A stretch of DNA of 40,956 nucleotides from NCBI RefSeq assembly GCF_000331535.1, contig NZ_AMZN01000053.1:1-40956 (forward strand), written 5' to 3'. Source of the DNA: Fulvivirga imtechensis AK7 (GTDB lineage Bacteria; Bacteroidota; Bacteroidia; Cytophagales; Cyclobacteriaceae). The notes under the pieces are model-generated. The model was not told the origin of the DNA and ran no database searches. It saw only the letters and a list, made by a program, of their open reading frames with translations. Below, one piece after another: positions 1 through 38,805 of the stretch (position 1 is its first letter; every line of letters starts with the position of its first letter). The position numbers and the translations under genes were made by a program.

Positions 1-77
1 ACTATAAACTATAAACTATAAACTATAAACTATAAACTATAAACCGTAAACTGTAAACTGTAAACTATAAACTGTAA
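1..77. repeat. Heptanucleotide tandem array, 11 units
   Basis: Eleven back-to-back 7-base units: ACTATAA six times, then ACCGTAA, ACTGTAA twice, ACTATAA and ACTGTAA. The period is exactly 7 and does not slip. The left end is cut by the window edge, so the array may be longer. It lies about 145 bases upstream of the superoxide dismutase gene. Units vary only at positions 3 and 4. Confidence 0.95.
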
Positions 78-222
78 ACCCCCTATCTACTTTCAAAACT
101 TTTGGAAGAAATGAAATAGCACACCACTACTCACGACTCTCTTCGCGGCTATTACCCATAGGGTGGATAAGAAGATTATTTTCTCTTATATTGGCCCCGA
201 TTTTTAACCAACGATAATAACT

Positions 223-6428: not shown

Positions 6429-8716
6429 ATGTTGTTATTTTTAAATTTGAGTAGAGAAAAGATGCCCAGAGATGCAATGGCCAAAACCAATATTTCTCCC
6501 ATAGTATCCAAAGCCCGGAAATCCACTAGGATTACATTTACAATATTTTTCCCATGGGCTTCTGTATAGCTATTTTGAGCGATATAGTTTGAAACCGGAT
6601 AGCTAAGGTGTAAATGGTCTGATTTTAGTACCAGTCCTGCCATAAAACCTCCTATCGACAGCGCTATTATTGCATCACGAACTTTGGAAGAGCGGGATAG
6701 GTGCTTGGTGAAGGGTGGTAATTTTTGAAAAACGAGTACAAAAAGAACCAGTGTCAGCGTCTCTACCAATACCTGGGTAATGGCAAGGTCTACAGCTCCG
6801 TAAACCAGGTAGATCACAGCAACCCCAAAACCTACTGCTCCCATAATGACGATCGCGACAAGCCTGGACGTGGTGAAAACAGCAGCTATTGCGGCTACAG
6901 ACATAGCAATGGCAATTGTAGCCACGTAGTAAGAAACGGGAGACAGATTTTGAAGGAATACCCAACTCCATGTATTATTTAGTTGATACCATATCAGCCC
7001 GGCAGCAACGATAAATACCACCATCAGGTAAAAGCGGTAGTACCCATGCTGAAAGAAGCTGGTATGTTTCTTTGTCAGTATCAGGAAATGATGCACCAGG
7101 TTATTGAAAACCGCCGCAAACTCAATGCTGAAAAGGGCGTTATTGACCTTGGCGAAAAGCGGTAACATAAATCTTCTGAAAGTAAAAATTAAAACACCCG
7201 ATGCTACCGTCACCAGGCTTAGCAGAAACGCCACATTGAAGCCGTGCCACAGCTTTAATTCAACTTCTACCGGTATGACTTTGACAGCGGCAAGAGCAAA
7301 TTCCATCAAAGGTTCAATGGGTTTGGGAAACAATGCCAATACGAGGCTCAGGGTAGCCAGGATGGCGGGTCCTATCCAGAAGGCAGCCCCTGCTTCCTTT
7401 ACCTGATGCTGCCGGTCTTCTTTTTTGAAGAATACTTTGTAGGCGAAGATCATGGAAACAGCCACCATAAAAATGTTGGACAGAACGCTGAACATCAACA
7501 CATAATCAGAAACCCCGGGGGCTTGTTCTCCGGCCTGGTATATGAATTCTTTGCTGATGTAGCCAAGCATTGGAGGCAGACCTGCCATTGATAGAAGCGC
7601 CAGCATGGCTGTGGCTGTGGTCAGCGGCATCTTTTTGTAAAGCCCTCCCAGCTCATTAATATTTCGGGTGCCCGTTTTTTTGTCGATGGCGCCGGCCACC
7701 ATAAACAAGGTGGCCTTATACAGCGCATGTACGATGAGATAGGTCAGGGCAGCTTTCACCGAAAGAAAAGTGCCTATTCCGATCAGCATCACTAAAATAC
7801 CCAAAGCGCTGATTGTTACATAAGCAAGTATGGCTTTAAGGTCTTTTTGCGTTAGGGAAAGATAAGCTCCGACCAGCATTGTGGCTGCCCCAAAAAAAGT
7901 GATAATATTTTGCCATTCGCTGGTATTTCCAAGTATAGGATTCAGCCGTGCCAACAGGTATATTCCTGCGTTGACCATAGCTGCCGAATGCAGGTAAGCG
8001 CTCACCGGGGTGGGCGCTTTCATGGCTATTGGCAACCAAAAGTGAAATGGGAATTGCGCTGACTTTGTGAATGCACCTATCAGTATGAGAATTAAGAGCG
8101 GCAGGTACAATGGATGCTCCGACAGCGACTCAGGGTTCGACAGCAGTTCAGTCAACTCGTAGGTTCCGGAGGCATGCCCCAGCAGGATGAATCCTGCCAG
8201 TAAGGATAGCCCTCCAAACTCAGTGATGATGAGCGCTTGCAAAGCAGCAGATCGGGCCTTCTTTTTATAGTGGTGAAAACCAATGAGTAAAAATGAGCTG
8301 ATACTGGTGAGTTCCCAGCAAACGTACAGGGTGATGAGGTTGGCAGAAAGTACCAGGCCGAGCATGGCTCCCATAAAAACAAGCATAAAGCCATAGAACC
8401 GCCCCTTATGTTCGTCAGACTTCATATACCCATTGGAGTAAATAAGCACCAACCCACCGATACCCAGAATTATTAGAGAAAACAGCAAGCTGAGACCATC
8501 CAGGTAAAAAGTCAATTGAATGCCCAGGGATTCCACCCATCCATAGGAGGTGTATAACTCCTGGCCGTTCCTGATAGCCGAATAAAGGGTCAAAAAGTAA
8601 ATGAAGAGTATCAGGGGGAGGATGGCCAAAACCATCCCGATACTCTTTTTGAGCAATTTTGCTATCAATGGTGCGAAGGCAGCAGCCACAAATATCGACA
8701 AAACGGATTGAAGCAT
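6425..8716 (-). CDS. mnhA: Na+/H+ antiporter subunit A
   Basis: 763-residue MrpA, the largest subunit, homologous to complex I NuoL. The antiporter core covers about residues 60-420: CWELTSISSFLLIGFHHY has the key Glu, SAQFPFHFWLPIAMKAPTPVSA is the family hallmark, and HALYKATLFMVAGAID carries the Lys/His. The C-terminus has an MbhD-like helix pair (VYGAVDLAITQVLVETLTL) and an MbhE-like end (RALDTMGEILVLAIASLGIF). The size is slightly below the roughly 800 residues of the Bacillus protein. It is the first gene of the operon; its promoter must lie in 8717-8895, shared with the divergent phospholipase-like gene. Physiological role: Na+ extrusion and alkaline pH homeostasis. Confidence 0.96.
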   Translation of the reverse strand: MLQSVLSIFVAAAFAPLIAKLLKKSIGMVLAILPLILFIYFLTLYSAIRNGQELYTSYGWVESLGIQLTFYLDGLSLLFSLIILGIGGLVLIYSNGYMKSDEHKGRFYGFMLVFMGAMLGLVLSANLITLYVCWELTSISSFLLIGFHHYKKKARSAALQALIITEFGGLSLLAGFILLGHASGTYELTELLSNPESLSEHPLYLPLLILILIGAFTKSAQFPFHFWLPIAMKAPTPVSAYLHSAAMVNAGIYLLARLNPILGNTSEWQNIITFFGAATMLVGAYLSLTQKDLKAILAYVTISALGILVMLIGIGTFLSVKAALTYLIVHALYKATLFMVAGAIDKKTGTRNINELGGLYKKMPLTTATAMLALLSMAGLPPMLGYISKEFIYQAGEQAPGVSDYVLMFSVLSNIFMVAVSMIFAYKVFFKKEDRQHQVKEAGAAFWIGPAILATLSLVLALFPKPIEPLMEFALAAVKVIPVEVELKLWHGFNVAFLLSLVTVASGVLIFTFRRFMLPLFAKVNNALFSIEFAAVFNNLVHHFLILTKKHTSFFQHGYYRFYLMVVFIVAAGLIWYQLNNTWSWVFLQNLSPVSYYVATIAIAMSVAAIAAVFTTSRLVAIVIMGAVGFGVAVIYLVYGAVDLAITQVLVETLTLVLFVLVFQKLPPFTKHLSRSSKVRDAIIALSIGGFMAGLVLKSDHLHLSYPVSNYIAQNSYTEAHGKNIVNVILVDFRALDTMGEILVLAIASLGIFSLLKFKNNNI

Positions 8717-13050: not shown

Positions 13051-13062
13051 CCTTCTGCTAAG

Positions 13063-13149
13063 CGCGGAGAGCGGAGGGATGGGTGTTGGGGTGTTTGGAG
13101 GATTCAGCTCTCCGCCCCCAGCTCTCCGCCCTCCGTCCTCCGCCCTCCG
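13063..13149. repeat. GC-rich heptamer array with inverted left arm
   Basis: From 13108 to 13149 six in-phase 7-base units are seen: CTCTCCG, CCCCCAG, CTCTCCG, CCCTCCG, TCCTCCG, CCCTCCG. At 13063-13080 the complementary motif CGGAGAGCGGAGGG occurs, so the spacer can fold into a GC-rich stem. It lies between the convergent stops of the SLC13 gene and queE, with only two bases to the queE stop codon. The base composition is far above the surrounding DNA. Confidence 0.85.
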
Positions 13150-13151
13150 CT

Positions 13152-13904
13152 CTATACCCCTCGTTTATTTCCATAAATATGGATATGCAGGCGATCAGTG
13201 TAATGGAAGTGATGTTCTTTGCATTGCTCGATAAGCCACTGTTGCTTTTGTTTGAGGGTTTCAGCAGAAGTGCCTTCAGGCATCAGGTATACTTTATTGT
13301 GATTGATCTCATATTTCCTGATCAGCCTGAAAACCTCTTCCATATCTTCGGGGGTATTGACCACAAACTTAAACACAGCTTTGGCATTGCTGGAAAAGAA
13401 ATTATAGGCATCTTCCTTCTCTCTGATCCTTTGTGTATTGCCTGAGTTGGCGAGCTTAGGCGACACATTGTACTGGTCGATGAGGACATCAAATTTTGCA
13501 CTGGGTATAATAGTGCCATTGGTTTCTATTTCAAACCAGTAGCCGGGATCAATATTTCTCAGATGCCGGATAAGGTCTAAAAGATCAGTCTGCTGCAGTA
13601 GGGGCTCGCCACCAGTTAGTACTATGTTTTTGCAACCCAGGGCCACCACCTCACAGGCAATGCCTTCAATGGATAGTTCGGCAATATACTCCGCTTTATC
13701 AAACTTCTGATAGCCCGGCAGCGCCTCATTTTGATGGTGAAAGGGGGTGCCTTTCCAGTTCCAGGTGTAGTCTGTATCACACCATGAGCAATGCAGGTTG
13801 CATAGTGATGTACGTATAAAAATACTGGGACGCCCGATATTTTTTCCTTCTCCCTGAATACTATAAAATATTTCTGCTTTCCCGTTGAGCCTGGCCAGTT
13901 TCAT
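13152..13904 (-). CDS. queE: 7-carboxy-7-deazaguanine synthase
   Basis: 250-residue radical SAM enzyme. The cluster-binding motif is CNLHCSWC (Cys35, Cys39, Cys42; CxxxCxxC), within FIRTSLCNLHCSWCDTDYTW. It is preceded by EIFYSIQGEG, typical of QueE, and followed by a Gly-Gly-Glu-Pro SAM-binding motif (VLTGGEPLLQQ). It converts 6-carboxytetrahydropterin to CDG on the route to queuosine (preQ0). No other que genes are adjacent. The start ATG lies 152 bases from divergent manA. Confidence 0.95.
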   Translation of the reverse strand: MKLARLNGKAEIFYSIQGEGKNIGRPSIFIRTSLCNLHCSWCDTDYTWNWKGTPFHHQNEALPGYQKFDKAEYIAELSIEGIACEVVALGCKNIVLTGGEPLLQQTDLLDLIRHLRNIDPGYWFEIETNGTIIPSAKFDVLIDQYNVSPKLANSGNTQRIREKEDAYNFFSSNAKAVFKFVVNTPEDMEEVFRLIRKYEINHNKVYLMPEGTSAETLKQKQQWLIEQCKEHHFHYTDRLHIHIYGNKRGV

Positions 13905-18654: not shown

Positions 18655-18670
18655 TGTGTAGCATGCTAAT

Positions 18671-18819
18671 TAGTGTCTGTAAGAAAACGCCAATGTCTGC
18701 GTTACGCTTGTCCCAAAAATGCTCTCGTACCTTAGTACGCTCCGCTTTTTGGGACTTCGTCCCGCCCTTTGGCGGGAACGTTTTTCTTAAAGCTACTTAG
18801 AGTTTTTTTGCAAACACTA
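18671..18819 (+). repeat. Dispersed repeat family I, copy B
   Basis: 149 bases, the best-preserved copy. Ends are TAGTGTCTGTAAGAAAACG and the inverted GCAAACACTA. Internal palindromes are GTACCTTAGTAC, GGGACTTCGTCCC and CCCGCCCTTTGGCGGG, and CCAAAAA pairs with TTTTTGG around the centre, so a strongly folded single strand is expected. It lies 16 bases after the histidine kinase stop and directly abuts a family II element. Confidence 0.92.
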
Positions 18820-18820
18820 A

Positions 18821-19049
18821 TTAACGTGAGTTCGATATGAAATGCTTAAAAAAGGGCAGTCATCCTATCCCGAAGGCTTTAAGGCTTTCGGGAGAAGGAT
18901 CTTCCTAAGTTGTTGGTAGTATACTTGAACTTAGTAAGATTCTTCGTGCCTCCCCGAGGCAAGTTGGGACAGGCAGAATGACCTAAAAAGAGGGTTTTTA
19001 GGGATATGAATACAATTTTATTGGTTCTACTATATCAAACTCACGTTAA
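18821..19049. repeat. Dispersed repeat family II, copy 1
   Basis: 229 bases bounded by inverted ends TTAACGTGAGTTCGATAT and ATATCAAACTCACGTTAA (17 of 18 positions pair). Inside is a hairpin CCCGAAGGC...GGCTTTCGGG (about 18872-18892) and the segment GTGCCTCCCCGAGGCAAG, also found in copy 2 at 28235. No coding frame. It occupies most of the 538-base gap between the kinase and the TonB receptor. Confidence 0.85.
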
Positions 19050-19130
19050 TTAACACTCTACACACTCAATATGCGGGCTCTTGTAATCCCTATTTAGAAC
19101 TTTCATCCAAAAAGTGATGTCCCCAATAGC

Positions 19131-22447: not shown

Positions 22448-23194
22448 ATGAGCTCAGAAGTCACTTCTACCGCTAGCTTTTTGCTGTTGACATCTATATT
22501 TTTTGTCGCCATAGTACTGCGTTACTTTCTGGTTGCCGGCATTTTTCACCTCCATTACTATGTAGTCAAACCCGGGGCCTACCGTTACCGTAAGTTGGGT
22601 AAAGAGGTAAATAATAGTCAAATCAGACGGGAAATATTAAGAAGCATTACATCTTCCATTGTTTTTGCTGTAGCCGGAGCAGGCTCATTTTGGCTCTGGC
22701 AAGAGGGTTATACGGCCATCTATTTGGAAGCAGACCAATATGGCCATTGGTATTTGCCTGTAAGTCTTATCATAGCCATGCTGATCCATGAAACGTATTA
22801 TTACTGGGTACACCGGCTAATGCACCACCCCGGAATATTCAGGGTTGTTCACAAAGCCCATCATGATAGCTTGTCGCCAACTCCCTGGACGGCCTTTTCA
22901 TTTCACCCATGGGAGAGCCTGCTGGAAGCCATTATTCTTCCGCTGATCCTGATAATTGTACCCCTTCACCCGGCTGTAATAGGTTTCCACCTGATGATCA
23001 TGACTGTTAGCAGCGTAATCAATCACCTTGGCATTGAAGTATATCCGGTAAAATTCCTGGAGCATCCTGTGGGGAAATTATTTATCGGAGCTACACATCA
23101 CCACCTTCACCATAAAGAGTTTCGAACTAATTTTGGCCTGTACTTCACCTTTTGGGATAAGTGGATGGGCACCGAGAGCAAGGCCGGGGGATAG
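22448..23194 (+). CDS. Sterol desaturase / fatty acid hydroxylase family protein
   Basis: 248 residues with four or five membrane helices and the complete set of His boxes binding a di-iron centre. They are HETYYYWVHRLMHH (about 114-127), HKAHHDS (about 136-142) and HHHLHH (about 216-221, preceded by GAT). The C-terminal FGLYFTFWDKWMGT is also typical. It introduces hydroxyl groups or double bonds into lipids; in bacteria, targets include carotenoids, sphingolipids and fatty acids, and cannot be decided here. It follows the 4HB gene by 34 bases and ends at a heptamer array. Confidence 0.9.
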   Translation: MSSEVTSTASFLLLTSIFFVAIVLRYFLVAGIFHLHYYVVKPGAYRYRKLGKEVNNSQIRREILRSITSSIVFAVAGAGSFWLWQEGYTAIYLEADQYGHWYLPVSLIIAMLIHETYYYWVHRLMHHPGIFRVVHKAHHDSLSPTPWTAFSFHPWESLLEAIILPLILIIVPLHPAVIGFHLMIMTVSSVINHLGIEVYPVKFLEHPVGKLFIGATHHHLHHKEFRTNFGLYFTFWDKWMGTESKAGG

Positions 23195-23229
23195 TTGCTG
23201 GTCACTGGTGACTGGTCATTGGTTGCTAG
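23195..23229 (+). repeat. Heptamer array after the hydroxylase gene
   Basis: Five in-phase 7-base units: TTGCTGG, TCACTGG, TGACTGG, TCATTGG, TTGCTAG, starting at the first base after the hydroxylase stop codon. It shares the units TCATTGG and TTGCTGG (the latter inverted, as CCAGCAA) with the arrays at 25714 and 25892. Confidence 0.85.
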
Positions 23230-24212: not shown

Positions 24213-24453
24213 GATTTGAAATTTTTGGCAAATAAAAGAAAAACAGTTTAGAAATGATAAGCGCGCCAAGTAATAAGTGAACCTTTTTGTGTTAATACTG
24301 ATTAATAGATCATCTTATGTTCCGCAGTTATTGTTGTTATTGATCTGTTAATTCCTCATCAGAATACTGGCAGACTATCGACATTTTATTATTTTTAACG
24401 AATAATATTTCTTGCAAAAGGGTTTGGCCCTGGAATTGAAAAAAATACATGTT

Positions 24454-25548
24454 ATGACCGTAAAGCATTTTTTGTTGGTAATAGTTGGAATGGTATCTAC
24501 AGTTTTTGTTTATGCCCAGCAAGCTGAGGAGCTTGTGTTTAGCGAAAAGACCTTTGATTTTGGAACCGTTAAAGAAGAAGATGGACCCATTATCCATGAA
24601 TTCAGCTTTATCAACAAAGGTTTAAAGCCGATAAAGATCACTGGCGTCAAAGCTTCCTGTGGGTGTACTACTCCGGACTGGACTAAAGAAACCGTTAACC
24701 CTGGTGAAACAGGTTATATCCAGGCCCAGTATAATCCACGCAATCGCCCCGGAGCATTTAATAAGAGCCTTACCGTTACTACAGATGCTTCAAACACACC
24801 TATGAGGCTGTATATTAAAGGAAATGTGGTGCCAAAGCCAAAGTCTGTAGAGGAGGAATTACCCACCGCCATGGGTGGGTTGCGGGTGAAGTATCGCTCT
24901 TTCAATATGGGTAAAGTGGAGACCACTGATGAACCTGCGGTGAAGGAGTTTCAGGTTTATAATATGAGTGAGACCCCGGTTACATTTCTGGAAAAGCAGG
25001 AGGCGCCTTCTTACATCAGGTTGGAGTTCGATCCTCAGGTGCTGGCCCCTGCTTCGGAGGGTGTGGTCAAGGTGATCTATGATGCTAAAGCGAAAAATGA
25101 TCTTGGCTTTAGCTCTGATAATGTAAAATTCTTGACAGATGAGGAGGGAGATGATGCGGTGAAATCGATTTCTGTTTATGCTACCATAGAAGAATATTTT
25201 CCACCGATGAGCCGGGAGGAGATGGATAAGGCGCCTCGTCTTAAGCTGGATGAAAATGTCCATGATTTTGGAAAGCTGAATGCTGATAAAAGTACAACCG
25301 GCAAGTTTACACTTACAAATGTTGGAGGGGGTCCATTAAAAATACGTCAGACAAAGTCCAACTGTACCTGTGTGGTAGCCAAATTGGGTAAAGAGACCCT
25401 GGAACCCGGGGAGAGTACCGAAATGGAGGTAACTTTTAACTCAGAAGGAAGGCGCGGCAATCAGCAAAAATCGGTCACCATCTTTTCCAATGACCCGCGA
25501 GGTTCAGCCCAGCGTGTGACTATTAAGGGGTACGTTAATAGCGATTAA
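24454..25548 (+). CDS. DUF1573 secreted protein, two domains
   Basis: 364 residues from ATG 24454, which gives a signal peptide (MTVKHFLLVIVGMVSTVFVYAQ); the in-frame upstream start is rejected. Two DUF1573 immunoglobulin-like domains: FDFGTVKEEDGPIIHEFSFINKG...ASCGCTTPDW (about 32-80) and HDFGKLNADKSTTGKFTLTNVGG...SNCTCVVAKLG (about 270-320). Each has the Cys-x-Cys typical of the family. A central region of about 110 residues may be a third, diverged Ig fold. Common in Bacteroidetes; function unknown, presumably periplasmic or cell surface. Monocistronic. Confidence 0.9.
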   Translation: MTVKHFLLVIVGMVSTVFVYAQQAEELVFSEKTFDFGTVKEEDGPIIHEFSFINKGLKPIKITGVKASCGCTTPDWTKETVNPGETGYIQAQYNPRNRPGAFNKSLTVTTDASNTPMRLYIKGNVVPKPKSVEEELPTAMGGLRVKYRSFNMGKVETTDEPAVKEFQVYNMSETPVTFLEKQEAPSYIRLEFDPQVLAPASEGVVKVIYDAKAKNDLGFSSDNVKFLTDEEGDDAVKSISVYATIEEYFPPMSREEMDKAPRLKLDENVHDFGKLNADKSTTGKFTLTNVGGGPLKIRQTKSNCTCVVAKLGKETLEPGESTEMEVTFNSEGRRGNQQKSVTIFSNDPRGSAQRVTIKGYVNSD

Positions 25549-25557
25549 ATATGGTCA

Positions 25558-25713
25558 CTGGTGTTAAGTTAAGCATACTTTAGCCATACCAAGCTTTGTT
25601 GTTTTTGTCCCATGCTGCCTTAAAAAATACACGGCTATGCTCATATTTTTTGCGTTGCCTGGAACAAAAATAACTACAACTTATACGACACAGTACACTT
25701 AACTCAACACTAG
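25558..25713. repeat. Dispersed repeat family III, complete near-palindrome
   Basis: 156 bases that pair along most of their length: CTGGTGTTAAGTTAAGCATACT against AGTACACTTAACTCAACACTAG, then TTGTTGTTTTTGTCCCATGC against GCCTGGAACAAAAATAACTACAA. The centre is AAAAAATAC...ATATTTTTTGC. A half copy is found at 36020. No coding frame. It lies 9 bases after the DUF1573 stop and directly abuts heptamer arrays. Confidence 0.82.
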
Positions 25714-25926
25714 CTGCTAGTCACGAGTCATTGGTCAGGTTCAATCTATGGCCGGTGTCTTAAAAGTAGGCAGTTGGCAGAAGCAGTAGGCAAGTAGCGT
25801 CCTGAGTGTTTAGTCATGAGTATTGAGTGTCGAGTTACGAATGCTGCGTTACTAATCCTATAAAAGACTAGTAAAGCTTTTCAGCAAGAAACCAGCAACC
25901 GACTGACCAGAACCAGCAACCAACAA
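25714..25926. repeat. Cluster of four heptamer arrays
   Basis: Four blocks with period 7 fill the spacer. 25714-25741: CTGCTAG, TCACGAG, TCATTGG, TCAGGTT. 25766-25799: GTAGGCA, GTTGGCA, GAAGCA (one base short), GTAGGCA, AGTAGCG. 25801-25842: CCTGAGT, GTTTAGT, CATGAGT, ATTGAGT, GTCGAGT, TACGAAT. 25892-25926: CCAGCAA, CCGACTG, ACCAGAA, CCAGCAA, CCAACAA, ending at the sulP stop codon. The first and last blocks use complementary units. Confidence 0.8.
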
Positions 25927-27462
25927 TTACACCATATCCGTAGCTACTTTGTAGGTAGGATCTTCGTAGTAATTTACTTCAATAATAGCCGAGGCATTAT
26001 TCATAAGTTTGCGGCAATCTTCACTCAAGTGCCTTAAATGTACTTTTTTTCCAACTTTAGCGTAGCGTTCGGTTACTTTATTGAGCGCTTCAATAGCGCT
26101 ATGATCCACTACTCTTGATTCTTGAAAGTCTATTACCACATGTTCGGGATCATTAGCCACATCAAATTTTTCATTAAATGCCGCTACTGATCCGAAAAAC
26201 AAAGGTCCGTAGATCTCATAATGCTTGTGTCCATGCTCGTCCAGGCTTTTTCGGGCTCTGATACGCTTGGCGTTTTCCCATGCAAATGCAAGTGCCGAGA
26301 TTACCACTCCAAGAATTACGGCCACGGCAAGGTTGTGAAAGATAACGGTTACACCAGCTACCAATACCATTACAATTACGTCAGTGAGGGGTACTTTTCT
26401 GAATATTCTCAGGCTTGCCCATTCAAAAGTGCCAATAGATACCATAAACATAAGCCCTACGAGCGCTGCCATGGGTATTTGCTCTATGAGTGATGACCCA
26501 AATAGTACAAAAAGCAGTAAAAACACCGCAGCAACGATCCCTGAAAGCCTGAACCGGCCACCGGAACTCACATTAATAATACTCTGGCCTATCATTGCGC
26601 ATCCGCCCATTCCGCCAAAAAAGCCCGTTGCTATATTGGCAACACCTTGAGCCACACATTCTTTATTGCCCCGTCCTCTTGTTTCAGTCATTTCATCAAC
26701 CACTGCCAAAGTGAGCAGACTTTCAATTAAACCTACCAGAGCCATGATTAACGAGTAAGGAAAGATAATGGTCAGCGTTTCCCAGTTTAATGGGACCACC
26801 GGAAAATGGAACTCGGGTAGTCCACCGGCAATGGAGGCAATATCACCTACTGTTTTTGTAGGTATACCAGCATAGATTACCACCAGTGAAATACTTACAA
26901 TGGCCATTAATGAAGAAGGTACTGCCCTGGTAAGCTTAGGGAGAAAATGAATAATGGCCATTGTAAGTATTACGAGGCCCAGCATAGTATATAGTGGCTC
27001 ACCAGTGAGCCATTGCAAGTTGCCAGAAGCATCTCGGGCTTTAAATTGACTTAGTTGAGCCAGGAATATGACTATAGCCAACCCGTTAAGAAAGCCGTAG
27101 ATCACCGGATGCGGAACTAGTCTGATGAATTTACCCATCCGTAGTACACCTATAACTATTTGAATAAGCCCCATGAGTACAGCGGCAGCAAAAAGGTATT
27201 CAACACCATGCCTGGCCACAAGAGTAACAATAACTACAGCTATAGCACCTGTGGCTCCCGAGATCATTCCTGGCCTGCCCCCAAGAATGGATGTGATCAG
27301 CCCGATAATAAATGCAGTATATAGTCCGATCAGAGGGCTTACACCTGCAATAATGGAAAATGCTACTGCCTCTGGTACCAGAGCCAATGCTACGGTTAGG
27401 CCCGACAATATTTCATTTTTAGGGTTGAATCCCTTCGTCTTCAATTGCTGAATAAAGGTCAT
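25927..27462 (-). CDS. SulP family anion transporter with STAS domain
   Basis: 511 residues. The transport domain (about 1-385) opens with [32 protein letters not shown], the SulP signature, and contains [20 protein letters not shown] around 285-305. The C-terminal STAS domain (about 410-500) has [19 protein letters not shown] with the conserved Asp-His-Ser. It is shorter than plant and animal SulP because of a compact STAS. Substrates in bacteria include sulfate, bicarbonate and C4-dicarboxylates; no carbonic anhydrase is adjacent. Repeat copy D ends 12 bases upstream of its start, so the element is part of its leader. Confidence 0.93.
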
Positions 27463-27474
27463 TTATAGAATAAT

Positions 27475-27619
27475 TAGGGTTTGTAAGAAAACGCTAAGTG
27501 GCTTTACGAAAACGTTGCTGCCAAAGGACGCGGCGAAGGGCCAAAAAGCGGAGTCCGCGGGGGATGAGCATTTTTGGGTCGGGCGTAACGCAGACATTGA
27601 CATTTTCTTAGAGACACTA
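27475..27619 (-). repeat. Dispersed repeat family I, copy D
   Basis: 145 bases in minus orientation: ends TAGGGTTTGTAAGAAAACGCTAAGTGGC (plus strand, left) and TTTCTTAGAGACACTA (right). The internal CCAAAAAGCGGAGTCCGCGG...GAGCATTTTTGGG matches copies B and E inverted. It sits 12 bases upstream of the sulP start codon, with the same direction as the gene. Confidence 0.9.
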
Positions 27620-27819
27620 TAATTAATAATTAGAGAATAGTTGACTCGTCTTCATTGCTTCAATGAATGAGTCGGACAGAATACTATGATAGACGCGCTA
27701 ATAGCCTGAGTGAGTATCAGGGTGGAGTCGGACGGGTGTGTTTTATACTGTGTTTCATAAAGAAGCTGCGAAGATAAAGTGCTATTAGGTAATAAGCAAA
27801 GAGGGGACAGCTATTTAAT
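27620..27819. other. Non-coding spacer with one weak hairpin
   Basis: No gene seen between repeat copy D and the terminator of the small charged protein. A hairpin with interrupted stem (GACTC...CATTG / CAATG...GAGTC, 27643-27673) is the only structure found. Nothing else can be supported. Confidence 0.4.
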
Positions 27820-32296: not shown

Positions 32297-32404
32297 GTGC
32301 TGCTCACTTTCTCATGCCAAATTTACTTAACTTATCCTGATGACCAAAAAATGTACGGCTTTATCAGTATATGCGGGAGTCTATTGTGATAAAAGAGCAC
32401 TAAT

Positions 32405-32547
32405 TAGTGTCTCTAAGAAAACGTCATCTGCGTTATGCTCGTCCCAAAAATGCTCACGTACCCCCAGTACGCTCCGCTTTTTGGCACTTCACAAGCCTTG
32501 ACCTTAACGTTTTCTTAAAGCCACTTAGAGTTTTCTTACAAACACTA
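32405..32547 (+). repeat. Dispersed repeat family I, copy E
   Basis: 143 bases, complete: TAGTGTCTCTAAGAAAACG at the left and GTTTTCTTACAAACACTA at the right, with CCCAAAAATGCTCACGTACC...GTACGCTCCGCTTTTTGG inside. Copy F begins three bases later, giving a head-to-tail pair joined by AAT. Confidence 0.92.
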
Positions 32548-32549
32548 AT

Positions 32550-33060
32550 TAGTGTCTCTAAGAAAACGCCAATGTCTGCGTTATGCTTGCCCCAAAATGC
32601 TTTGTGATCATTACACTAGTACCCAGTGCGATTCGCTTTTTGCGACTTCACAAGACTTGCCCCTCAGTCAAGCGATCCCTTTAGTAAATCTTCCATGCTC
32701 TTTAGATAAGAATGTTATCCCGAGACAAACGACAACTTTTAATTGATTTTGAGGATAATGACATTATGCATCATTAACCACAGAGGAGGAACAGAATCAC
32801 AGACCACCACGTCATCCTGGAATTTTCGTAGAGCAACGGAGAAAATATTCAGGATCCCCTGATCCGTTGGCAGAGGCTGAAGTTCAGTCACAACCAGTAG
32901 CGAGGAGATCCCGGATCTTCACTGTGTTACGTCCGGGATGACGGTAGTGGAGAATTGAATAATTATCTGACTATCAGTATGTAATTTAGCCATTTGCTCA
33001 CAGCCTTGGCTTTTTTGTTATCCCGAAAGCTTCTTAAAATTTTCTTTCAGACACCAATTA
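32550..33060 (+). repeat. Dispersed repeat family I, copy F, probably split
   Basis: The left half (32550 to about 32662) starts TAGTGTCTCTAAGAAAACGCC and matches copies B and E. A right-end remnant TTCTTAAA...TTTTCTTTCAGACACCAATTA is at about 33030-33060. The intervening roughly 370 bases include a family IV element (32810-32943). A split by insertion is inferred. The right end reaches the cspA-like stop codon. Confidence 0.6.
32810..32943. repeat. Family IV repeat (GTCATCCTGG ... CCGGGATGACG)
   Basis: 134 bases bounded by inverted ends CGTCATCCTGGA and TCCGGGATGACG. Inside are ATTCAGGATCCCCTGATCCG and GAGATCCCGGATCTTC. Similar GTCATYCTGA/GGATC pieces are found at 18857 and 40899 in this window. 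No coding capacity. Confidence 0.7.
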
Positions 33061-35601: not shown

Positions 35602-35610
35602 AGTGATAAT

Positions 35611-35753
35611 TAGTACTTGTACGAAAACTCTAAGTGGCTTTAAGAAAACATTAAGAATCAAGGCTTATGAAGTGCCAAAAAGCGCAGTTGGGGGTACGTG
35701 AGCATTTTTGGGACGAGCATAAAGCAGACATTAACGTTTTCTTAGAGACACTA
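35611..35753 (-). repeat. Dispersed repeat family I, copy G
   Basis: 143 bases, minus orientation: left end TAGTACTTGTACGAAAACTCTAAGTGGCTTTAAGAAAAC, right end TTTTCTTAGAGACACTA. Internal GTGCCAAAAAGCGCAGTTGGGGGTACGTGAGCATTTTTGGG. It is the leader of the secreted hypothetical gene at 35601. Confidence 0.9.
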
Positions 35754-36019
35754 ATTATGTTCACTATATCCTATGCCAATGGTTTGCCAAACGGAAAAAA
35801 CGTATATTTTTGAATTTCCGGGTATTATTACCGGTAATTAGTGAGGCCTAAATTCCCCTTGATGTAGTTATGCCTTCGAGTTATAAACACTAATTTTTTT
35901 CACAAAAGGAGGCTGCCTCAACAGGTTTCGTCATCTGTACTTGTTTCATAATCCTTTTCTATTTCTGTGCTTGACGATTATTCCAAAGCGAAGCCTGGAA
36001 TAGCGAACATTCTATAAGA

Positions 36020-36079
36020 CAGCATGTGACAAAAAGAACAAAGCTTGGTATGGCTAAAGTACACTTAACTCAACACTGG
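36020..36079. repeat. Dispersed repeat family III, half copy
   Basis: 60 bases matching the inverse of the left arm of the 25558 element: CAGCATGTGACAAAAAGAAC, AAGCTTGGTATGGCTAAAGT, ACACTTAACTCAACACTGG. The other arm was not found upstream, so the copy is broken. It overlaps repeat copy H by 3 bases at its right end. The region 35754-36019 before it shows no gene. Confidence 0.75.
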
Positions 36080-36224
36080 TGTCTATAAGAAAACTCTAAG
36101 TGGATTTAAGAAAACGTTCCCGCTAAAGAGCTGGATGAAGTGCCAAAAATGCTCACGAACTGAGATATGAGAGCATTTTTGGGACAAGCATAACGCAGAC
36201 ATTGGTGTTTTCTTAGGGACACTA
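36077..36224 (-). repeat. Dispersed repeat family I, copy H
   Basis: 148 bases, minus orientation: left end TGGTGTCTATAAGAAAACTCTAAGTGG, right end TTTTCTTAGGGACACTA, with CCAAAAATGCTCACGAACTGAG and GAGCATTTTTGGGAC inside. The right end lies one base from the metalloprotease stop codon, so the gene reads directly into it. Confidence 0.9.
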
Positions 36225-36225
36225 T

Positions 36226-38805
36226 CTATCCCTCATATTCTTTCAAAGCATTGTCAATTAAAGTTCTCAAGTGTGCTTTATGTGCTTTTGATGCTATGTT
36301 TCCCGTTGATGAACCTGCTTTTATTTTGATAGCGTTAAGGTTATAAAGGGCCATAGATTTAGCTATATTGCTATACTTGCCTACTCTGTCTTTATTTAAT
36401 ATGTCTATCAGCATTTTGGTATACTCCAGTTGCAGGTTTTGCCGGAATGAATTTATCGCAGCAGAAGATATATCCGCATCAAATATCGCCTGATTCAGAT
36501 CGGTCATGAATTCTACCAGATCATAATCGTTACCGTAAAGTTCAGTGTCAGTCAGGCGCTGCAGTGTATTTTCGTGTAGCAAATGCTGAAGTATGGATCG
36601 TTGTGCAGACAGTACAGTTTCATGTATCTTTGGATCTTCAGTATCTCTGGAAAAGTTGAACCCTCTTCGCTGCATTGCCAGATGGCTAAACAGATCAGAA
36701 GGTATGTCAAAAGCAGCAGGACTAAATATGTTCTCGCTCAGCAATTGCATCGCTCTTTTTTGGTCTTGATAAGCCACAGGTGTAAATGGCTGTTTTGCGC
36801 CATCCTGCCCCACCACTGAACGGTCTACATAAATTCCTCCGATAAACCGTGATGCAACCCGCCCGGCCTGCGCATACTGTGCGTGCAGAATGTAAAACGC
36901 TTGCCTTAGCTCCTGGTAGCTCTGACCTTTTTTAGAATACTGTCCTTTTATCTGCCCCATCATATGCTTCACGAGTTCCATTCTGTCTGCTGAATATGAC
37001 AACTGGTCGTTAGACTGGTCACCGATCATCACTCGAGGGTCAACACCACGGTCGGAGGATCGCATATCATCAGCATCGTTTCCAAATAGCAACTGAGGCT
37101 CGGTAGACCTGGCAAGGATCTCATCTAATTCCGAAGCATTTTTTACCACCTTATATCCGAATTCGATCGCCCACTCATCGTAAGGGCCAATGGTTGGAGA
37201 AAAGTACTGTCCCTGCTGGCTCCTGTCTTTTGTTGCATTAATGGCCAAATAATCCATTACGGAGCCTGAAAGCGCCTTTCCCTTAATAAAATCTTTGTCG
37301 TTGAGTTGAGTGGGTGTATATAGCTGGCTTGCTTTCATATTATGGTTCAGGCCCAGTGTGTGACCGACCTCGTGCATGATCAGCTCCATCATGGCTTCTT
37401 TCTTCATACCCTCCAGTTCCAGGGCATTAGCTCCTTCTGCCAGCATTACAGCCTGACCGAAAAGGCTATTTTCGAGCATCATATTGCCATAAAAACAGTG
37501 TTTCGAAGCATCATCAACACCCCATTCAGGCATGTGGTGCTCGGCAGTGGGATTAAGATCGAAAAGATTGGAATATGCTACCCTGTTGGTATGGAAGATG
37601 AATTCAAGCATAATATCAGCACCCATGATCTGGCCTGTTTTAGGGTTGACAAAGCTTGGACCATAGCCCCCAAAAGCAGGCTGGGGAGAAGAAGTCCATC
37701 TGAGCACGTTATAACGAATATCCCCGGCATCCCAGTCGGCATCGTCAGGCTGCACCTTAACCTCGATTGCATTTTTAAAACCGGCCTTCTCAAAGGCTTT
37801 ATTCCACTGCAATACAGCTTTTTTTACGGTCTCTCTGAATTCCAGGGGAGTAGTGTTTTCAATCCACCAGGTAATAGGAGTTACGGGTTCTGAAAGCACA
37901 GCTTCCGGCTCCTTCTTTTTTAAATGCCAGCGCTCGATCATATCCCGGTAAGGTGTGGGGCTTACAGATGTCATATCGTCCACCTGCGTAGTGAAATAGC
38001 CCACCCGAGGATCGTCAAATCGGGGTGTGAAATCATTTTCGGGCATTGCGATAAGGCTGTGGTAAACTTTTATGCTCACATTTCGCCCGTCAGCGATAGC
38101 ATTGGAGCCACTATTGAGTACGGAAGAGCTGCTGTATACGTATTCAACAAGAAAATCAGCATTTTCAGGGTAGTTCCTTATGGCTCTGACTTTGGTTTTT
38201 TCATTATCCAGTTGCCCCAGGGTGAATGAGTTGAGCGGCAAACCGAAAAACTTTGGCGGCTTAACTTGTTCGAATGTCTCTTTTAAGAACAGGTTATCGG
38301 CTTTGATCAGGTAACGGGAGTTGGTGCTGGCTTCTATTTTTTCAGTGGCCATAATTCCCTTACTAGTATTGGCTTCTGCTGATCTGCTTAAGGGGTTTTC
38401 TTCATCAAAATAGAAGGAGTTATTCTGAGTTATAAAATCCAGTTTGTCGTAGTACTTTTCTATTTTAAAAACCTTTGAGCCCCGATAAGCTCCCCGGAAG
38501 GCGTAGGCTTCTCTAACACCATCGGCAATCTGACTGAAATAAATGTATTCCTTATTCAATTGGTTTTCTCTGACCTCCATATATAATGAGCCCGATGTGG
38601 TATCTCTGTAGAAAGTGAAAAGTCCATCTATTTTCTCGCATTTCTTTACCAGATCATTAATGGATTTTTTCTCAGACTTGCGCGTAGTTTGCTCCGGGGC
38701 CTCGTTCCCGGATTTCTTTTTCTTTTGAGCTTCAACAGGGGCCGTTATTAAAAGCAGGTAAAACGCCATAAAGACCCACTTAATTTTTAAGGAGGAAGAT
38801 AACAT
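36226..38805 (-). CDS. Secreted zinc metalloprotease, DUF5117/DUF4953 type
   Basis: 859 residues with signal peptide (about 1-26). The zinc motif is HEVGHTLGLNH (His478, Glu479, His482, His488), extended metzincin-like HExxHxxGxxH. N-terminal DUF5117-like region (about 60-290), a catalytic core (about 300-560), and C-terminal DUF4953-like region. Motif SVMDYLA about 40 residues after the zinc site is the expected Met-turn. These proteins are abundant, poorly characterised in Bacteroidetes, and exported. Its single promoter is likely in 38806-39259, shared with divergent gapN. Confidence 0.9.
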   Translation of the reverse strand: MLSSSLKIKWVFMAFYLLLITAPVEAQKKKKSGNEAPEQTTRKSEKKSINDLVKKCEKIDGLFTFYRDTTSGSLYMEVRENQLNKEYIYFSQIADGVREAYAFRGAYRGSKVFKIEKYYDKLDFITQNNSFYFDEENPLSRSAEANTSKGIMATEKIEASTNSRYLIKADNLFLKETFEQVKPPKFFGLPLNSFTLGQLDNEKTKVRAIRNYPENADFLVEYVYSSSSVLNSGSNAIADGRNVSIKVYHSLIAMPENDFTPRFDDPRVGYFTTQVDDMTSVSPTPYRDMIERWHLKKKEPEAVLSEPVTPITWWIENTTPLEFRETVKKAVLQWNKAFEKAGFKNAIEVKVQPDDADWDAGDIRYNVLRWTSSPQPAFGGYGPSFVNPKTGQIMGADIMLEFIFHTNRVAYSNLFDLNPTAEHHMPEWGVDDASKHCFYGNMMLENSLFGQAVMLAEGANALELEGMKKEAMMELIMHEVGHTLGLNHNMKASQLYTPTQLNDKDFIKGKALSGSVMDYLAINATKDRSQQGQYFSPTIGPYDEWAIEFGYKVVKNASELDEILARSTEPQLLFGNDADDMRSSDRGVDPRVMIGDQSNDQLSYSADRMELVKHMMGQIKGQYSKKGQSYQELRQAFYILHAQYAQAGRVASRFIGGIYVDRSVVGQDGAKQPFTPVAYQDQKRAMQLLSENIFSPAAFDIPSDLFSHLAMQRRGFNFSRDTEDPKIHETVLSAQRSILQHLLHENTLQRLTDTELYGNDYDLVEFMTDLNQAIFDADISSAAINSFRQNLQLEYTKMLIDILNKDRVGKYSNIAKSMALYNLNAIKIKAGSSTGNIASKAHKAHLRTLIDNALKEYEG

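What the first reader, a model, noticed from the sequence alone, without database searches (positions are those of the whole stretch)
25714..25926. Several different tandem arrays in one spacer, all with a period of seven bases
Between the DUF1573 gene and sulP, four blocks follow one another. Units differ (TCATTGG-like, GTAGGCA-like, nnnGAGT, CCAGCAA-like) but the period stays 7, with a single 6-base unit. Only 2-3 positions of each unit are constant within a block (e.g. GAGT at positions 4-7). The first and last blocks use complementary units. Similar arrays sit at 1-77, 13108-13149 and 23195-23229. A shared period without a shared unit suggests a mechanism measuring length, not sequence. 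Cyanobacterial STRR repeats are also heptanucleotides; I know of no such mechanism described for Bacteroidetes.
Basis: partly seen in the sequence, partly recalled or inferred. Interest (0 to 1): 0.75.

Follow-up and report, generated by a model that had tools for sequence, protein, structure and literature searches.

The report
Seven-base repeat arrays filling gene spacers
This bacterium of the genus Fulvivirga carries many arrays of seven-base repeats between its genes, often starting right where a gene ends; such repeats are known from other bacteria, so this is a rich new example of a known but unexplained habit rather than a new system.

Summary
In detail: in 25714-25926 lag 7 and its multiples stand out (0.413 against 0.252; reached by 0 of 5000 shuffles). 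In 427 kb of the same Fulvivirga genome lag 7 gives 19 segments, lags that are not multiples of 7 at most 3; a further 400 kb holds 24 arrays. This spacer is a composite: a palindromic dispersed repeat, decayed heptamer blocks, a copy of a dispersed module with a hairpin, and a block ending at the sulP stop codon. Arrays change in steps of 7, keep register while units drift, share a restricted, largely species-specific vocabulary, and avoid genes (0 of 112). Six of seven comparable array spacers are longer than in all relatives measured, e.g. 211 bp where three relatives have 1 bp. Arrays abut stop codons more often than chance, also in other genera, though not in six arrays of other Fulvivirga. 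Heptamer arrays, a 'polymerase contacts 7 nt' idea and a weak 7-mer excess in Bacteroidetes are already in print. Verdict: a new, unusually rich member of a known kind; stop-codon anchoring is the property worth testing.

The parts
24454..25548 (+). DUF1573 gene; its stop codon bounds the spacer on the left
   Evidence: ORF; Pfam DUF1573 2.9e-68
25557..25716 (.). Dispersed palindromic repeat (module A, MITE-like in look), not heptameric
   Evidence: hit depth up to 12 in 1.23 Mb of the own genome, e.g. 90.6% over 170 bp; long inverted repeat in the fold
25721..25745 (+). First heptamer block, TCATTGG-like, decayed (limits by eye)
   Evidence: nominal p 0.04 for lag 7 in 25714-25762; pairs with the last block
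25762..25890 (+). Copy of dispersed module B: GGCA block, GAGT block, hairpin
   Evidence: at least 46 matches in the own genome, this copy included, to a composite of the module (40 of 140 first-look candidates scored); longest copy elsewhere 79% over 131 bp
25765..25800 (+). GTAGGCA-like heptamer block inside module B
25801..25846 (+). GAGT-type heptamer block inside module B; some copies elsewhere differ by gaps of 7 and 21, others by other lengths
   Evidence: lag 7 0.590, p 0.0002; alignments
25846..25877 (.). Hairpin of module B (GCGTTACTA..TAGTAAAGC here; GCTTTACTA..TAGTAAAGC in most other copies)
   Evidence: fold of 25840-25892, minus strand, z -3.3, 0 of 200 shuffles; the longer 25784-25892 is not significant (z -1.4 and 0.4); copies
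25882..25926 (+). Last heptamer block, CCAGCAA-like, ending at the sulP stop codon
   Evidence: lag 7 0.526, nominal p 0.02
25927..27462 (-). sulP (sulfate permease family); ends 1 residue before its three closest held relatives, with the array directly after the stop
   Evidence: Pfam Sulfate_transp 3e-56
1..79 (+). Heptamer array AACTATA/AACTGTA at the contig start
   Evidence: TRF 11.3 copies, 93%; score 63
13057..13153 (+). Heptamer array filling a spacer between two convergent stop codons: G-rich units, then C-rich ones
23190..23223 (+). Short heptamer array CTGGTCA

Best explanation
The spacer carries decayed heptanucleotide tandem arrays of the kind found in many spacers of this Fulvivirga genome. 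Proposed working: (1) arrays grow and shrink by whole 7-bp units, by replication slippage or unequal exchange (shown: 7 and 14 bp steps between copies; inferred: the enzyme step); (2) point mutations arise in units and spread along the array, so neighbouring blocks differ in letters but keep register (shown: register; inferred: spread); (3) arrays reach new spacers with small dispersed hairpin or palindrome modules and by copying between arrays, which gives one vocabulary per genome (shown: dispersed modules, shared units; inferred: route); (4) selection removes them from genes, since 7 is not a multiple of 3, and tolerates them up to about the last codon, so they fill tight gene junctions and start at stop codons (shown: 0 of 112 in genes, excess at stops, C-termini kept; inferred: selection as the cause). 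Why 7 and not 6 or 8 remains open; the published polymerase-contact idea is untested here. No function is needed.
For: Lag 7 dominance in this genome. Steps of 7: gaps of 7 (10) and 14 (3) among 19 gaps of 4 or more in arrays, 21 of 324 outside (few repeat families, so not independent). Register: rotation 0 commonest in 16 of 33 arrays, control 52 of 387. Vocabulary: 68 coincident pairs against 5.05, max 13 of 2000 shuffles; 16 against 1.12, max 7 (38 of 51 clusters usable). Dispersal: module B at least 46 matches; 56 of 112 arrays fall in one cluster linked by similar flanks or neighbourhood. Intergenic: 0 of 88, 0 of 24. Gain against G014/G008/G001: own spacers 211, 217, 151, 398, 970, 91 bp against 1-1-1, 40-48-43, 13-18-25, 189-190 (two relatives), 71-71-71, 20-24-3. 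Native ends: 7 of 7 testable abutted genes end within 5 residues of their relatives (4 of 11 candidates had no relative among the fetched loci).
Against: Relatives share only about 65-78% DNA identity, too far to watch single steps; one genome per species is held, so strains were not compared. The seventh comparable array spacer, L023 7359-8347, is not longer than all relatives (987 against 6914, 1029, 903), and 7 of 18 comparable spacers without called arrays also grew by more than 100 bp. Slippage alone does not explain shared units in unrelated spacers, nor 211 bp in a 1-bp junction. Units at stops show a strand bias (31 of 40 GT-type against 507 of 995, p 0.001, pooled by hand) that selection alone does not predict. 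Other Fulvivirga genomes, with MutS like this one, have few or no arrays in the samples taken. Outside the called arrays the lag-7 excess is weak (z 1.3), and in 80 named loci it is absent over spacers as a whole (z 0.7).
Confidence: 0.6

Rival explanations
1. The arrays are cargo of mobile repeats: REP/MITE-like hairpin modules carry heptamer blocks as arms, insert beside genes and decay; the period is a property of the element, not of replication.
For: Module B with its hairpin has at least 46 matches and many copies keep block order; module A is palindromic; some spacers hold complementary arrays at both ends, e.g. L044 6567-6785 around a hairpin; 56 of 112 arrays are linked by flanks or neighbourhood.
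Against: The other 56 arrays fall in 50 small clusters; the insert before hemC in L036 18677-18887 consists of heptamer arrays by eye, with no hairpin module seen; units differ between elements; no constant ends or target duplications seen in the ten sites printed (by eye only).
Confidence: 0.2
2. Purely local slippage: each array starts from a chance duplication in its own spacer, and 7 is favoured by the polymerase (Mrazek 2007, as cited).
For: Steps of 7 and kept register; heptamer arrays also occur in other genera (12 segments at lag 7 in 80 named loci, though 9 at lag 6 and 10 at lag 1) and in print.
Against: Units are shared between unrelated spacers far above a letter-shuffled null; RAACTRW triples give 316 overlapping hits here, 7 in G001 and none in 13 other Fulvivirga genomes.
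Confidence: 0.12
3. The arrays are binding sites or leaders with a regulatory role, as suggested for TAACTGA repeats before start codons in Beggiatoaceae (PMC4679880).
For: 8 of 71 arrays lie within 10 bp of a start codon against 2.9 expected, 3 of 17 against 1.1 in the held-out set; a 182-bp array ends 2 bp before an ATG conserved in two relatives.
Against: Stops show the stronger excess and starts none in other genera (0 of 17); arrays are missing from the same spacers of relatives; units vary between loci.
Confidence: 0.06
4. An enzyme writes heptamers onto DNA ends from a template (telomerase or reverse-transcriptase like), measuring 7 nt.
For: The GT-type strand points away from gene ends at stops; complementary arrays face each other across some spacers.
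Against: This genome, the richest in arrays of those sampled, has one weak reverse-transcriptase fragment, while G005, with no array in 100 kb, has 7 matches; the orientation bias is partly background (control 433 of 710 edges; spacer order p 0.04) and not significant at starts.
Confidence: 0.02

Closest known systems
Heptanucleotide simple sequence repeats of bacteria (Mrazek et al. 2007, seen only as cited; PMC4060949 Table 2)
   Same: Tandem 7-bp units in excess over neighbouring unit lengths. PMC4060949 gives Bacteroidetes a median of +0.75 on a scale of -4 to +4 for three or more heptamers in a row (34 genera) and 0 for 4- to 6-mers and 8- to 11-mers; four other phyla also have a positive median.
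   Different: Here arrays are long, degenerate, mosaics of several unit families, and often anchored at stop codons; I saw no such description in the parts read.
TAACTGA direct repeats of Beggiatoaceae, Cyanobacteria and five Bacteroidetes (MacGregor 2015, PMC4679880)
   Same: Intergenic heptamers, other heptamers nearby, shorter spacers without obvious repeats in some close relatives; [quoted passage not shown]
   Different: No tandem TAACTGA pair in 1.63 of 6.74 Mb of this genome; the main unit here is RAACTRW, and most arrays are not before start codons.
Xanthomonas/Nostoc G-rich heptamers (PMC4692102) and cyanobacterial STRR
   Same: Heptamer period, partly degenerate units, length variation between related genomes (passages).
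   Different: GGGGAYT and GGGAATC pairs: 0 in 1.63 Mb. STRR unit sequences were not compared; the name STRR is from the finding and recall.
BrickBuilt MITE minisatellite of Porphyromonas gingivalis (PMC4596501, abstract and outline)
   Same: Bacteroidetes, tandem array inside a small dispersed inverted-repeat element, intergenic.
   Different: Unit of 23 bp, one element found 19 times in one strain; here 7 bp and many units.

Membership tests
Bacterial heptanucleotide tandem repeats (broad sense) | Unit length 7 dominates over other lengths | tested here: met
   for this genome
Bacterial heptanucleotide tandem repeats (broad sense) | Intergenic location | tested here: met
   0 of 112 arrays mainly inside called genes; elsewhere 0 of 6 and 1 of 18
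Bacterial heptanucleotide tandem repeats (broad sense) | Copy number changes by whole units | tested here: met
   13 of 19 gaps of 4 or more are 7 or 14; between copies in one genome, not between strains
TAACTGA repeats | Unit TAACTGA in tandem | tested here: not met
   0 tandem pairs in 1,626,185 of 6,735,232 bp
TAACTGA repeats | Mostly just upstream of start codons (as in BOGUAY) | tested here: not met
   8 of 71 arrays within 10 bp of a start, 22 of 71 within 5 bp of a stop or overlapping it
Xanthomonas/Nostoc G-rich heptamers | GGGAATC or GGGGAYT units | tested here: not met
   0 tandem pairs in 1.63 Mb
Cyanobacterial STRR (strict) | The published STRR unit sequences | not tested
   units not at hand from any call
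MITE/transposon | Constant terminal inverted repeats and target-site duplication | tested here: inconclusive
   module A palindromic; no constant ends seen by eye in the ten sites printed, no statistical test
Reverse-transcriptase written repeats | A reverse transcriptase in the genome | tested here: inconclusive
   one 75-position match at 31.4 bits, cut-off 29.6

The most novel reading that the evidence does not exclude
Heptamer arrays in Bacteroidota are born or inserted specifically at stop codons, where ribosomes leave the transcript: the displaced, GT-rich coding strand behind the last ribosome (an R-loop zone) would be the substrate that slips in 7-nt steps, so the period would reflect an enzyme footprint and the site would reflect translation. 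It fits the excess at stops in this genome (22 of 71 against 5.3; held-out 4 of 17 against 1.3), in other genera, mostly Bacteroidota (9 of 17 against 1.2, starts 0), and the GT-type coding strand after stops. Against it: six arrays of other Fulvivirga genomes show no excess (1 against 1.1), and selection for the least harmful site is not excluded and is simpler.
Probability: 0.12. Interest if true: 0.75.

Novelty: new member of a known kind. Interest (0 to 1): 0.45.

Why it matters
Heptamer repeats have been noted in bacteria for years without an accepted cause for the number 7. This genome offers several hundred arrays (an extrapolation from 22 in 427 kb, and 24 in 400 kb), relatives that lack many of those compared at the same gene junctions, and two measurable regularities, steps of 7 with kept register and anchoring at stop codons, which open the cause to direct test. 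It also shows a tight gene junction (DNA polymerase III delta'-like gene and hemC) with about 210 bp of repeats where three relatives have 1 bp.

Tried and rejected
Chance: rejected. 'No shared unit': rejected. A common RRY motif in all units: dropped, because any seven-letter circle that is neither all purine nor all pyrimidine contains RRY on one strand (reasoning, no call).

Synteny breaks at arrays: the sulP spacer and L044 14680-15080 suggested it, but the same gene pair was found in at least one relative for 7 of 11 array spacers and 18 of 30 others (my count), so no association; some 'None' rows only mean that the relative's stretch was not fetched.

Phylum-wide preference for particular units: RAACTRW triples occur in 31 of 395 Bacteroidota genomes, the reversed pattern in 30 by my count, so none; AACCAGY triples in 19 of 395 against 5 for the reversed pattern, so weakly yes. 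Left open. In the 80 named loci lag 7 (12 segments) barely leads lag 1 (10) and lag 6 (9).

Telomere-like polarity at both gene ends: first seen by eye, then tested. Skews are mixed (array position against keto skew p 0.04, GC skew p 0.003, TA skew p 0.54). GT/AC counts show it at stops (31 of 40 against 507 of 995) but not significantly at starts (10 of 13 against 754 of 1241, p 0.27). Within arrays GT-first 24, AC-first 21.

Truncation of genes by arrays as the cause of stop anchoring: not supported, C-termini lie within 5 residues of relatives in 7 of 7. But some stops look remade at the array: sulP and the L023 gene ending at 7359 end 1 and 4 residues early, the L044 gene at 15080 has a few foreign last residues, and TAG is 15 of 33 among abutted stops against 229 of 901 others. 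'Arrays hold stops in all frames' is not generally true: 95 of 224 array strands.

Loss of mismatch repair: MutS_V is present in 15 of 15 genomes. RNA families: none at gathering scores in 24300-27600. My first reading of the gene before hemC as hemA was wrong: Pfam says DNA polymerase III delta.

Selection of sequence: of the first 20 own-genome stretches 18 were chosen for matches to this spacer. The 427-kb set (C55, most of C2) and the 400-kb held-out set (C6, C43, part of C9) are runs of contigs, but most of these contigs came to my notice through earlier repeat hits that also told their lengths, so they are not fully blind. In all 1.63 of 6.74 Mb was sampled. Genes were called by a home-made codon model; starts are rough. 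Arrays without both neighbours were left out of the distance tests: 17 of 88 and 7 of 24. Match counts are lower bounds (40 candidates scored of 135 and 140).

Full report
What was checked. The finding says that four blocks with different units but one period of seven lie between a DUF1573 gene and sulP (both names confirmed by Pfam). In 25714-25926 the lag-7 self-match is 0.413, lags 14, 21 and 28 are raised as well, and no other lag from 2 to 30 exceeds 0.314. None of 5000 dinucleotide shuffles reaches it. Only the GAGT block is significant alone; the other three are nominal; 25847-25881 is not heptameric and lies in a hairpin.

Anatomy of the spacer, 25549-25926, between two convergent genes. 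From the left: 25557-25716 is a palindromic dispersed repeat (hit depth up to 12 in 1.23 Mb). Next comes a decayed TCATTGG-like block. 25762-25890 is a copy of a dispersed module made of a GGCA block, a GAGT block and a hairpin; a composite of that module has at least 46 matches in the genome, and aligned copies differ in the GAGT part by gaps of 7 and 21 in two cases and by other lengths in others. Last is a CCAGCAA-like block that ends at the sulP stop codon. The first and last blocks pair in the folded minus strand (z -5.3 for the whole spacer, palindrome included). So the spacer is a composite of repeats, not four independent arrays.

Genome-wide. The window is contig C53 of a 6.74-Mb, 225-contig genome of the genus Fulvivirga: G001, given as the same genus, holds a sulP contig with the length and match position of a named Fulvivirga kasyanovii contig. 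In 427 kb, stretches with at least 62% self-match over 42 bp number 19 at lag 7, 16 at 14, 15 at 21, 12 at 28, 8 at 35 and at most 3 at any other lag from 1 to 40. By a segment score, 1.23 Mb holds 88 arrays at lag 7 and 0 to 3 at lags 8, 10, 11, 13, 16 and 17; a 400-kb held-out set holds 24 against 0 to 2 at ten other lags. Over all sampled spacers lag 7 stands 5.6 standard deviations above lags that are multiples of neither 3 nor 7; lags 3, 6, 9, 12 and 21 are higher, probably from coding sequence missed by my gene calls; without the called arrays the excess falls to 1.3. In samples of five other Fulvivirga genomes it is 0.3 to 2.0, and 0.7 in 80 named loci. So the signal sits in discrete arrays and is strong in this genome. 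Counts elsewhere in the genus: 2 in 200 kb (G014), 0 in 200 (G008), 2 in 100 (G003), 0 in 100 (G005), 1 in 80 (G011), 0 in 60 (G013), 0 in 60 (G009 and G012).

How the arrays behave. Between copies that share flanks, 13 of 19 gaps of 4 bp or more in arrays are 7 or 14, against 21 of 324 multiples of 7 outside arrays (few repeat families, so not independent events). Among unlike units of one array, rotation zero is the commonest best fit in 16 of 33 arrays, against 52 of 387 control stretches: the letters drift, the register stays. In the 81 of 112 arrays with an exact adjacent pair, dominant units coincide 68 times against 5 for shuffled letters, and 16 against 1.1 after collapsing arrays with similar flanks or close neighbours (38 of 51 clusters usable). 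The main family, RAACTRW, gives 316 overlapping hits for three tandem units here, 7 in G001 and none in the other 13 Fulvivirga genomes. Other species show other units, for example CCAATAA in G003 and CCAGTAA in G011.

Position. No array of 112 lies mainly in a called gene; in other genomes 0 of 6 and 1 of 18 do. Of 71 arrays with both neighbours, 22 lie within 5 bp of a stop codon or overlap it, against 5.3 +- 1.5 for random placement in the same spacers (p 0.001, the lowest that 1000 placements allow); 8 lie within 10 bp of a start against 2.9 (p 0.003). Held-out: 4 of 17 against 1.3 (p 0.008) and 3 against 1.1 (p 0.015). In 17 usable arrays of the 80 named loci 9 abut a stop against 1.2 expected (p 0.0002) and none a start; these lie in 8 loci, mostly of other Bacteroidota genera. 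Six arrays from other Fulvivirga genomes show no excess (1 against 1.1). At stops the coding strand of the array is GT-type in 31 of 40 untied cases against 507 of 995 in array-free spacers (p 0.001, counts pooled by hand); at starts 10 of 13 against 754 of 1241 is not significant.

Empty sites. Four 20-kb stretches were compared with three relatives, G014, G008 and G001. Of 11 spacers with arrays, 7 have the same gene pair in at least one relative; 6 of these are longer than in every relative measured: 211 against 1, 1, 1 (between a DNA polymerase III delta'-like gene and hemC), 217 against 40, 48, 43, 151 against 13, 18, 25, 398 against 189, 190, 970 against 71, 71, 71, and 91 against 20, 24, 3. 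The seventh, 987 bp, is not. Of 30 spacers without called arrays, 18 have a counterpart and 7 of these also grew by more than 100 bp; 4 of the 7 hold a dispersed repeat and one, L044 9044-9220, heptamer-like words by eye. In the 398-bp case the array lies between a still recognisable upstream region (by eye) and a conserved ATG, ending 2 bp before it. Abutted genes keep their ends: 7 of 7 testable end within 5 residues of their relatives. At one junction where this genome has other repeats, G014 and G008 carry heptamer-like words with different units (L203 1667-2052, by eye).

Reading. Arrays grow by whole units, drift in register, are copied between spacers with or without small hairpin modules, and are tolerated up to about the last codon. 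Slippage, copying route and selection are inferred. A reverse-transcriptase writer is unlikely (one weak fragment here, 7 matches in G005, which has no array in 100 kb), and loss of MutS is not the cause.

Known work. PMC4679880 (abstract, outline, passages, section 12) describes TAACTGA arrays in Beggiatoaceae, Cyanobacteria and five Bacteroidetes, other heptamers beside some of them, shorter spacers without obvious repeats in some close relatives, and cites Mrazek 2007 for heptamers being the most abundant class in most genomes and for the idea that 7 nt is the stretch contacted by the polymerase. PMC4692102 (passages) describes G-rich heptamers in Xanthomonas and Nostoc and repeats that idea. 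PMC4060949 (passages, section 9 part 1) gives Bacteroidetes, with four other phyla, a positive median for heptamers in tandem. PMC4596501 (abstract and outline) describes a 23-bp array inside a MITE of Porphyromonas. Mrazek 2007 itself was not read. In the listings of searches and the passages read I saw no report of a general excess at stop codons; most subscription journals are not held.

Verdict. Observation confirmed, the length-step part of the interpretation supported, 'no shared unit' and 'not described for Bacteroidetes' not. The spacer is an ordinary, decayed member of a rich family in this genome; the family is a new and unusually informative member of a known kind.

Noticed in passing
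window 18665-19052, 27466-27631, 32399-32662, 35603-35766, 36009-36229, 2306-2489: Dispersed repeats at very high copy number: hit depth 43 to 88 in only 1.23 Mb of the genome. Not named or classified.
   Followed up: no
L028 12499-12550, L031 15251-15410, L040 16463-17128: Hairpins of the module-B kind beside a second hairpin type (GCTTTACTAAACTTCC..GGTAAAGC), repeated in L040; REP/BIME-like in look.
   Followed up: partly
L036 15477-15729 and L044 6567-6785: Another hairpin-like word around TAGTGGTGGCACCACTA / GTGCCACCACT in spacers that grew against three relatives (by eye).
   Followed up: no
L203 1667-2052 and its counterparts in G014 and G008: The same gene junction carries heptamer-like words in two relatives with different units, while this genome has other repeats there (by eye).
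   Followed up: partly
window 1-79; L022 38-224; L024 154-212; L026 121-227; L014 43-88: Contigs C53, C111, C69, C36 and C10 begin within or close to heptamer arrays: the assembly may break there, so array numbers may be underestimates.
   Followed up: no
L045 14807-18592: 3.8-kb repeated segment, hit depth up to 11, possibly an insertion sequence.
   Followed up: no
genes abutted by arrays, own sample of 1.63 Mb: TAG is used by 15 of 33 array-abutted genes against 229 of 901 others, as if arrays sometimes supply the stop codon.
   Followed up: partly
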